Below, piece after piece: positions 32,216 through 33,680 of a stretch of DNA of 64,000 nt (position 1 is its first letter; each line of letters opens with the position of its first letter). The translations under genes were made by a program, and so were the position numbers. The stretch is taken from positions 47,399 to 111,398 of the forward strand of contig JABHZE010000003.1 in NCBI GenBank assembly GCA_018653485.1. Direction: 5' to 3'. The notes under the pieces are model-generated. The model was not told the origin of the DNA. It searched no databases and saw nothing but the letters and a program-made list of their open reading frames with translations. Source of the stretch: an archaeon (GTDB taxonomy: Archaea; Nanobdellota; Nanobdellia; Pacearchaeales; GW2011-AR1).

Positions 32216-32398
32216 ATGGCAAAACAAAAAATAAACTGCATATTATGTAATGAAAAAATTGAAGAAGAGTATGGAAAATTAAAAGGAAGTATTGTTAAGG
32301 CAGTAGATGAAAATAAAAAAAATCAAATGATTTATGTTTGTTCTGAATGTCAGAAAAAAGAAGATTGGGTTAATGAAGCAAAAATTAAGGGCGCTTGA
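32216..32398 (+). CDS. small zinc-ribbon-like protein
   Basis: A 60-residue protein with two Cys pairs, CILCNEKI near the start and VCSECQKKE near the C-terminus, the spacing of a single zinc ribbon. Such small proteins are common in archaea and often bind RNA or ribosomes, but I cannot name this one. It stands alone, divergent from argS, and converges with the UUCG hairpin RNA. Confidence 0.7.
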   Translation: MAKQKINCILCNEKIEEEYGKLKGSIVKAVDENKKNQMIYVCSECQKKEDWVNEAKIKGA

Positions 32399-32539
32399 TT
32401 GAAACAGCGACGGTGTTATTTCTAGTAAGGTATTAAATAAATATAGAATTAACTTGTGAAATAAATAAAAAAATTATTTTTGAAATAATTTTAGTCTTTT
32501 CAAATCTAAACTACGAGACATTAAACAAAGATTTGAAAA

Positions 32540-32647
32540 TAAAAAAAGGAGAATAAAAACCGAAGTTTAAATTCTCCTACACTAACCGAAGTCAGTGAAA
32601 GCAAGAAAAAACCGAAGTCAATCCTTGCTATCTACCGAAGTAGATAA
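32540..32647 (-). ncRNA. RNA made of four UUCG-capped hairpins
   Basis: On the minus strand, four consecutive hairpins occupy 32629-32646, 32601-32628, 32580-32597 and 32548-32577. Each is capped by C-UUCG-G, but the stems differ in sequence (TATCTAC, GCAAGGATTGAC, CACTGAC, GGAGAATTTAAAC arms). The minus strand is favoured because stems 2 and 3 then gain G-U pairs where the plus strand has A-C mismatches. CATTTAAATAC at 32666-32676 is a TATA box ~25 bases before the first stem, and seven T follow the last. No open frame is present. Confidence 0.65.
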
Positions 32648-32665
32648 TTATTATAAAACTTTAGA

Positions 32666-32676
32666 GTATTTAAATG
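32666..32676 (-). promoter_or_regulatory. TATA box of the UUCG hairpin RNA
   Basis: Read on the minus strand, CATTTAAATAC stands ~25 bases before the outermost hairpin of the array. The distance places transcription start at the first base of that hairpin. Confidence 0.5.
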
Positions 32677-32752
32677 TTGTTTTTTACTTAGAGGGAGAAA
32701 ATTGTTTGAATGAATTAGGAACCTTTATTTATCTTAAAAACTGCCCATTTAT

Positions 32753-33490
32753 ATGAAAATTGATGAAGACATAGCAGAACTCCTTGGAATCCATATAGGT
32801 GATGGGTGCATAAGCGAAAATAGTAGATACTCAGAATATTATCTTGGAGGAGATATAATTGAAGAAAAAGAATATCATGATGATTGGGTTGGACCTCTTT
32901 TTAATAAAAAAATAATGAATCCTTTATTTGGAATAAATGTAAATTATAAAGAACATCCCAAGGTTGGAATTTATGGTTTTCATATTTTTAATAAAGAGTT
33001 AGTTGATTTTTTCAAAAAATTTGGGATTGTATCTGGCTCTAAAATAAATATGGGCATCCCTATAGAAATAAAAAATGATAAAAATTTGCTTAAAAGATTT
33101 TTAAGAGGCATATTTGATACTGATGGTAGTTTATATTTCAATAAAAATTATTCAATTAAAAATCATAAAAATTTAATAAATAATAACCCTATAATTCAAT
33201 TAAGTGGAGTATCAAAAACATTGATTCAAGATGTATCAGATTCTCTGAAAGAATTAGGATTCTTCCCAAGATTAAAAAAACCTTACAAAGGTAAAAGGGA
33301 TAAAAATAAAGTTTATTCAGTTAGAGTATACAAGAGGAAGGATATTGAGGAATTTATTAAAATAATCGGATTCAAAAATCCTAAACATTATACAAAATGG
33401 CAAGTTTATAAAAAACTTGGATATTGTCCTTCATATACCAAATTAAAAGAAAGAAAAAACCTCTTAATAGACGATTCAAAAGATTTATAA
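32753..33490 (+). CDS. free-standing LAGLIDADG homing-endonuclease-like protein
   Basis: A 245-residue protein with two LAGLIDADG motifs: LLGIHIGDG at residues 9-17 and FLRGIFDTDGSLYF near 117-130, each with its acidic residue. The C-terminal half has the strand-rich DNA-contact pattern (VYSVRVYKRKDIEEFIKIIGF). It is not inside an intron or intein here. It lies directly before tRNA-Leu, a typical target for such enzymes, although this tRNA gene carries no intron. A TTTATTTAT element ~26 bases before the ATG suggests a leaderless message. It could alternatively be a domesticated regulator. Confidence 0.8.
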   Translation: MKIDEDIAELLGIHIGDGCISENSRYSEYYLGGDIIEEKEYHDDWVGPLFNKKIMNPLFGINVNYKEHPKVGIYGFHIFNKELVDFFKKFGIVSGSKINMGIPIEIKNDKNLLKRFLRGIFDTDGSLYFNKNYSIKNHKNLINNNPIIQLSGVSKTLIQDVSDSLKELGFFPRLKKPYKGKRDKNKVYSVRVYKRKDIEEFIKIIGFKNPKHYTKWQVYKKLGYCPSYTKLKERKNLLIDDSKDL

Positions 33491-33514
33491 GTTTAGATAT
33501 TTAGGTAGATTTAT

Positions 33515-33598
33515 GCGAGGGTTGCAGAGTGGTCAAATGCGCAGGACTTAAGATCCTGTGGCTTAGTGCCTTCGTAGGTTCGACTCCTACCCCTCGCA
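33515..33598 (+). tRNA. tRNA-Leu (anticodon UAA)
   Basis: A complete class II tRNA. The acceptor stem GCGAGGG pairs with CCCTCGC and is followed by discriminator A. The anticodon stem CAGGA/TCCTG encloses loop CTTAAGA with anticodon TAA at 33549-33551. A long variable arm (about GGCTTAGTGCC) and the T arm TAGG-TTCGACT-CCTA follow. No intron; CCA is not encoded, consistent with the CCA-adding enzyme in this window. Confidence 0.97.
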
Positions 33599-33680
33599 TT
33601 AGATTTTTTATTTCAAAACTTAATAAAGAATATTCTGAAGAACGTAATTAATTTTAAATAAAGCAATTCTATTTTATTGT

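What the first reader, a model, noticed from the sequence alone, without database searches (positions are those of the whole stretch)
32540..32647. Minus-strand RNA built from four UUCG-capped hairpins
Four adjacent hairpins have the same C-UUCG-G cap but different stems. G-U pairs exist only on the minus strand, and a TATA box and T-run bracket the array. Repeated identical loops on different stems resemble protein-sponge RNAs such as CsrB, where the loop is the binding site. I know no archaeal RNA of this design.
Basis: partly seen in the sequence, partly recalled or inferred. Interest (0 to 1): 0.8.

Follow-up and report, generated by a model that had tools for sequence, protein, structure and literature searches.

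The report
New UUCG-hairpin RNA family in Pacearchaeota
The window holds one member of an apparently undescribed family of small archaeal RNAs, each a string of two to eight hairpins that share one loop while their stems vary, made from its own promoter and probably serving as a docking array for an unidentified protein.

Summary
On the minus strand, 32541-32646 folds into four adjacent hairpins, all capped ACUUCGGU, with different stems (z = -6.8, none of 200 shuffles as stable). The four are two tandem copies of a two-hairpin unit that recurs across one Pacearchaeota family. A covariance model finds it in 52 of 200 genomes of the order, all in that family and spread over 23 genera. Stems covary strongly; the UUCG loop is essentially fixed. 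Hairpin number ranges from 2 to 8, and some loci use a Y-shaped form. 53 of 67 arrays have a TATA box starting 26-31 nt before the first hairpin, against about 7 by shuffling, and most end in a U-run. Arrays are nearly all intergenic, and two positions (next to argS; between dph2 and aIF5B) recur across genera. Rfam has no such family. This is a real non-coding RNA family. Its function is inferred: the only unpaired parts are closed tetraloops, short linkers and the U-tail, so I favour multivalent protein binding over base pairing. A strict CsrB-type sponge is only partly supported: the genome has no other stable ACUUCGGU hairpin and no partner was found.

The parts
32675..32682 (-). A-rich stretch just upstream of the TATA box (BRE position)
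   Evidence: Sequence; across 67 arrays positions -34 to -32 are 70-84% A
32667..32674 (-). TATA box TTTAAATA starting at -28 from the first hairpin base
   Evidence: Sequence; 53/67 arrays have a TATA-like 8-mer starting at -31..-26, shuffle mean 7.2, max 12
32629..32646 (-). Hairpin 1 (unit 1): UAUCUAC-UUCG-GUAGAUA, 7-bp stem; predicted 5' end of the RNA
   Evidence: Fold; R1 match 32598-32646, 64.2 bits
   Evidence: Fold; R1 match
32580..32597 (-). Hairpin 3 (unit 2): CACUGAC-UUCG-GUUAGUG, 7-bp stem
   Evidence: Fold; R1 match 32541-32597, 65.5 bits
32547..32578 (-). Hairpin 4 (unit 2): AGGAGAAUUUAAAC-UUCG-GUUUUUAUUCUCCU with a U.U internal loop
   Evidence: Fold; R1 match
32536..32546 (-). 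U-rich 3' tail (UUUUUU A UUUU), probable U-tract terminator
   Evidence: Sequence; a T-run of 4 or more follows the last loop within 45 nt in 63/67 arrays, against 30/67 in an upstream control stretch; U-tracts terminate archaeal transcription, mostly without a hairpin (PMC8716108)

Best explanation
The feature is a gene for a ~109-nt non-coding RNA (minus strand, about 32646 to 32538), one member of a new Pacearchaeota RNA family. A TATA promoter starts transcription at or next to the first base of hairpin 1, and transcription ends in a U-tract after the last hairpin (inferred from conserved anatomy). The RNA is almost fully double-stranded and displays the same rigid cap, R-C-UUCG-G-U, two to eight times. 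I infer that each cap and the top of its stem is a binding site for one protein and that the array binds several copies, so it acts as a multivalent protein-binding RNA: a decoy or store for that protein, or the RNA core of a particle. Shown by comparative sequence: structure, promoter position, loop constancy, varying copy number, intergenic position. Inferred: transcription itself and protein binding. Unknown: the protein, and whether the outcome is titration or assembly.
For: Stable fold. Homologues in 52/200 genomes of the order, all in one family and 23 genera. Covariation on the first 11 units: 96.6% of cells paired versus 79.7% shuffled, 35 double changes versus 11.4, collapsing when slid by one column. 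172 distinct hairpins anchored on the loop only: first-hairpin pairs 3-7 at 89-100% complementary versus 46-73% shuffled, ending sharply at pair 7. Loop constraint beyond UUCG stability: second pair is A-U 137, G-U 32, U-A 9, C-G 1, G-C 0 of 179, while the third pair accepts 27 G-C or C-G. Promoter: 53/67 versus 7.2 by shuffling. Hairpins per array 2 (39 arrays), 3 (20), 4 (5), 6-8 (3); Y-shaped forms keep the cap. Linkers of 0-5 nt in the two-hairpin unit leave little room for antisense pairing. Nearly always intergenic, recurring at argS and dph2-aIF5B loci in different genera.
Against: No transcript data. No partner: RRM proteins occur in 111/200 genomes but in none of the array-bearing genomes of the window's genus; the neighbouring 60-aa CxxC protein does not track the array; LSM is near-universal and so uninformative. 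Own genome has no other stable RYUUCGGU hairpin. Detection is patchy (2 of 20 genomes at least 90% complete), so the RNA is not universal or not always recognised. UUCG is also a generic stable cap, and the arrays were found partly through that motif, which inflates loop constancy somewhat.
Confidence: 0.6

Rival explanations
1. CsrB-type sponge in the strict sense: the array titrates a regulator away from mRNAs that carry the same hairpin.
For: Repeated identical loop on varying stems, variable copy number, own promoter and U-run.
Against: Own genome: 6 ACTTCGGT, 5 of them in the two arrays; of 21 RYTTCGGT, only one weak 4-bp hairpin outside the arrays; the reversed control pattern is commoner. 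mRNA sites of another shape are not excluded.
Confidence: 0.2
2. Tandem transcription terminators: UUCG hairpins plus T-runs that merely end neighbouring transcripts.
For: Last hairpin plus U-run looks like an intrinsic terminator. A phage contig that looks T4-like (L268) has a similar UUCG pair just after a capsid-like gene and scores 40.5 bits.
Against: TATA box fixed 26-31 nt before the first hairpin in 53/67. Upstream neighbour is on the opposite strand as often as on the same (26 versus 27). In the window no minus-strand gene lies just upstream. Archaeal termination generally needs only a U-tract (PMC8716108).
Confidence: 0.08
3. Leader or attenuator of the downstream gene, for example aIF5B.
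For: In several genomes the array lies 50-70 nt upstream of aIF5B on the same strand (L036, L045, L051, L052).
Against: In other genomes the same position has other genes between, and many arrays precede genes of unrelated function or on the opposite strand (19 of 57 with a downstream neighbour). A second TATA-like stretch lies between array and aIF5B in L046, L051 and L052 (judged by eye).
Confidence: 0.07
4. Base-pairing small RNA stabilised by UUCG hairpins, with the Lsm protein on the U-tail.
For: U-tail; an LSM gene in 183/200 genomes, two in the own genome; archaeal Lsm binds small RNAs (PMC3432209).
Against: Almost no unpaired sequence and no conserved seed; unpaired bases are the closed tetraloop and 0-5-nt linkers.
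Confidence: 0.05

Closest known systems
CsrB/CsrC/RsmX/Y/Z sponge RNAs (bacteria)
   Same: Short RNA gene, many stem-loops with one repeated loop motif, variable copy number, U-tract 3' end (CsrB side from general knowledge)
   Different: Motif is a closed ACUUCGGU tetraloop, not GGA; almost no unpaired sequence; smallest form has two hairpins; partner and matching mRNA sites unknown
Tandem UUCG intrinsic terminators of T4-like phages and bacteria
   Same: C-UUCG-G hairpins followed by U-runs
   Different: Pacearchaeal arrays have their own TATA promoter at a fixed distance, up to eight hairpins, and no tie to an upstream gene end
Archaeal Lsm-bound small RNAs (Haloferax; PMC3432209)
   Same: Short intergenic RNA from an archaeal promoter
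   Different: No unpaired target-recognition region here; no homologous family in Rfam

Membership tests
CsrB/RsmZ-type protein sponge | Multiple stem-loops with one repeated loop motif | tested here: met
   2-8 hairpins sharing RYUUCGGU
CsrB/RsmZ-type protein sponge | GGA motif in loops or linkers | tested here: not met
   Loops are UUCG
CsrB/RsmZ-type protein sponge | Match to the corresponding Rfam families | tested here: not met
   No Rfam hit in the window except a tRNA; none relevant at E<=1 in five array loci
CsrB/RsmZ-type protein sponge | Titrated protein also binds the motif in mRNAs | tested here: inconclusive
   No other stable RYUUCGGU hairpin in the own genome beyond one weak 4-bp stem; other site shapes not tested
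CsrB/RsmZ-type protein sponge | Binds and sequesters an RNA-binding protein | not testable with these tools
   Needs pull-down
Independent RNA gene (small ncRNA) | Own promoter at constant distance | tested here: met
   53/67 arrays, shuffle mean 7.2
Independent RNA gene (small ncRNA) | Conserved secondary structure with compensatory changes | tested here: met
Independent RNA gene (small ncRNA) | Transcript observed | not testable with these tools
   No transcriptome held
Tandem intrinsic terminator | Lies at the 3' end of a same-strand gene | tested here: not met
   Same-strand upstream gene in only 27 of 53 with a neighbour; none just upstream in the window

The most novel reading that the evidence does not exclude
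A new class of archaeal RNA whose units are interchangeable UUCG-capped hairpins, forming a multivalent scaffold or decoy for a dedicated, still unknown RNA-binding protein that recognises R-C-UUCG-G-U; possibly the first such multivalent protein-binding array in archaea.
Probability: 0.5. Interest if true: 0.85.

Novelty: new variant of a known kind. Interest (0 to 1): 0.72.

Why it matters
Little is known about regulatory RNA in the reduced, largely uncultured DPANN archaea. This gives a clearly bounded RNA family with promoter, structure and many natural variants, in which loop number is the obvious variable. It makes a direct test possible: does an archaeal protein read a UUCG tetraloop in sequence-specific fashion, and does the effect scale with the number of loops? 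If so, protein-binding hairpin arrays like CsrB arose independently in archaea.

Tried and rejected
(1) RRM protein as the partner: present in 111/200 genomes, but absent from all array-bearing genomes of the window's genus. (2) The neighbouring 60-aa CxxC protein as partner: follows the genus, not the array. (3) Lsm: near-universal, no discrimination. (4) Mimicry of rRNA: no ACUUCGGU hairpin in the 16S/23S stretches examined. (5) Array in viruses: the loose pattern mostly returned chance matches; only L268 (40.5 bits, probably a phage terminator), L302 (33.7) and L298 (25.6) passed E 0.1. (6) Array outside Pacearchaeota: the bacterial pattern hits score under 30 bits; class-wide, the few hits outside the family look like chance or an unrelated repeat. 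(7) Known RNA family: none. (8) Weak model hits in other genomes of the genus (G007, G012, G013) show no UUCG pair.

Full report
CHECK OF THE OBSERVATION. The minus strand of 32530-32660 folds into four consecutive hairpins, each closed by C-UUCG-G, at -39.3 kcal/mol; 200 dinucleotide shuffles average -19.2 (z -6.8, none as low). The plus strand folds less well (z -4.8), as expected if the G-U pairs belong to the minus-strand RNA. CTTCGG occurs six times in the 64-kb window (about three expected), and four copies lie within 81 nt in one orientation. A TATA box (TTTAAATA, minus strand, 32667-32674) and a T-run (32541-32547) flank the array.

RELATIVES REVEAL THE UNIT. Searching related genomes with the 131-nt sequence gave partial, strong matches in the same genus and a second place in the own genome (G000:C2:80374-80427). 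Read in full, these are ~50-nt elements of two hairpins followed by a T-run, e.g. TGCCTACTTCGGTAGGTAGCAAGTTTTGACTTCGGTTTTAACTTGCTTTTTTTT. The window array is two such units head to tail (hairpins 1+2 and 3+4). Record titles of same-genus contigs identify the host as Candidatus Pacearchaeota (contigs NZCQ01000029.1 and NZDU01000003.1 match G005:C29 and G003:C3 in length and match place).

COVARIATION. In 11 units, 96.6% of pair cells are standard pairs (shuffled 79.7%), 35 cells carry changes on both sides (shuffled 11.4), and sliding partners by one column drops pairing to 46-49%. In a set anchored only on the TTCG loop (172 distinct hairpins), pairs 3-7 of first hairpins are 89-100% complementary against 46-73% when shuffled, with no excess at pairs 8-9: a 7-bp stem with a sharp end. 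Hairpins entered this set with at least 3 bp, so pairs 4 and beyond are the unselected test. Shuffling ignores relatedness, but the spread over 23 genera and the slid control make shared descent an unlikely explanation.

DISTRIBUTION AND ARCHITECTURE. A covariance model (R1) finds the unit in 52 of 200 genomes of the order, all in the window's family, in 23 genera. A tandem-motif pattern over 378 genomes of the class gives hits mainly in the same family, where the backward control gave none; elsewhere hits are as rare as the control or form an unrelated 40-nt repeat. Arrays have 2 (39), 3 (20), 4 (5) or 6-8 (3) hairpins. Some genera have a Y-shaped form, an outer GUAGGAG/CUCCUAC stem carrying two UUCG arms (L155-L157); L197 and L206 begin with the same GTAGGAG. 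In L157 and L206 the form lies near argS, as in the window.

PROMOTER AND END. Aligned on the first base of the first hairpin (or outer stem), 53 of 67 arrays have a TATA-like 8-mer starting at -31 to -26. Shuffles give 7.2 on average (at most 12), and the 6-nt windows away from this place give 1-12. Positions -34 to -32 are A in 70-84%. This places the start of transcription at or near the base of the first hairpin. A T-run of at least four follows the last loop within 45 nt in 63 of 67, but the regions are AT-rich and an upstream control stretch has such a run in 30 of 67, so the 3' end is less certain. Archaeal terminators are U-tracts that generally do not need a hairpin (PMC8716108).

LOOP. 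The closing pair is C-G in 163 and U-G in 15 of 179. The next pair is A-U 137, G-U 32, U-A 9, C-G 1, G-C 0, although the third pair takes G-C or C-G 27 times. Stability alone would favour G-C next to the cap; its absence suggests recognition of R-Y-UUCG-G-U. Caveat: the search used this motif, so the frequency is somewhat inflated.

CONTEXT. Arrays are nearly all intergenic; a few overlap only short unsupported ORFs, and L041 overlaps a long open frame. The window copy lies between a LAGLIDADG gene (opposite strand) and a 60-aa CxxC protein convergent with it, with argS beyond. The second copy lies between glutaredoxin/dph2 and an ATP-cone nuclease-like gene followed by aIF5B. The dph2-aIF5B place recurs in about ten loci and argS in about six. 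Upstream neighbours are on the same strand in 27 and the opposite in 26, which argues against a terminator role.

MECHANISM. The RNA exposes only rigid tetraloops, short linkers and a U-tail, so sequence-specific antisense pairing is unlikely. Constant caps on covarying stems with varying copy number are what a multivalent protein-binding RNA would show. I therefore favour a protein-binding array (decoy or RNP core). A strict CsrB analogy requires competing sites; the own genome has six ACTTCGGT, five of them in the arrays, and no other strong RYUUCGGU hairpin. No partner was found: RRM, the CxxC neighbour and LSM do not discriminate.

KNOWN OR NEW. No Rfam family matches, and paper searches found no such archaeal RNA; those libraries are incomplete. 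Works like: CsrB-type arrays in design. Member of: none. I rate it a new variant of a known kind (multi-hairpin protein-binding RNA), with the RNA family itself apparently undescribed.

Noticed in passing
32753-33490 (+) and 33514-33599 (+): A LAGLIDADG-domain ORF (PF14528, E 5e-13) ends 24 nt before a tRNA-Leu(UAA) gene, divergent from the array; possibly a free-standing homing endonuclease.
   Followed up: partly
32216-32398 (+): 60-aa protein with two CxxC motifs, no Pfam or NCBIfam match, in most genomes of the genus and scattered beyond; lies between array and argS.
   Followed up: yes
G000:C2:80374-80427 (in L213): Second two-hairpin copy in the own genome, between glutaredoxin/dph2 and an ATP-cone/Mrr-like nuclease gene plus aIF5B.
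   Followed up: yes
L155, L156, L157 (also probably L197, L206): Y-shaped variant: outer GUAGGAG/CUCCUAC stem with two UUCG arms and its own TATA box. The outer stem strand contains GGAG (Shine-Dalgarno-like) opposite CUCC.
   Followed up: partly
L268:3129-3181: Phage contig (T4-like by its gene content, judged by eye) with tandem UUCG hairpins and a T-run right after a capsid-like gene; scores 40.5 bits with the model, so the model can pick up phage terminators.
   Followed up: partly
order-wide search: Single RRM_1 proteins are common in this Pacearchaeota family but occur in only one of the genomes of the window's genus that were searched; no archaeal control genome had one.
   Followed up: no
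L088, L092, L132: Lachnospiraceae/Oscillospiraceae contigs with regularly spaced (46-nt) repeats of the ACTTCGGT pair, up to six; nature unknown.
   Followed up: no
G208:C13:14549-14636 and C18:20300-20347: A 40-nt repeat containing ACTTCGGT in another family of the class; not an array of this kind.
   Followed up: no
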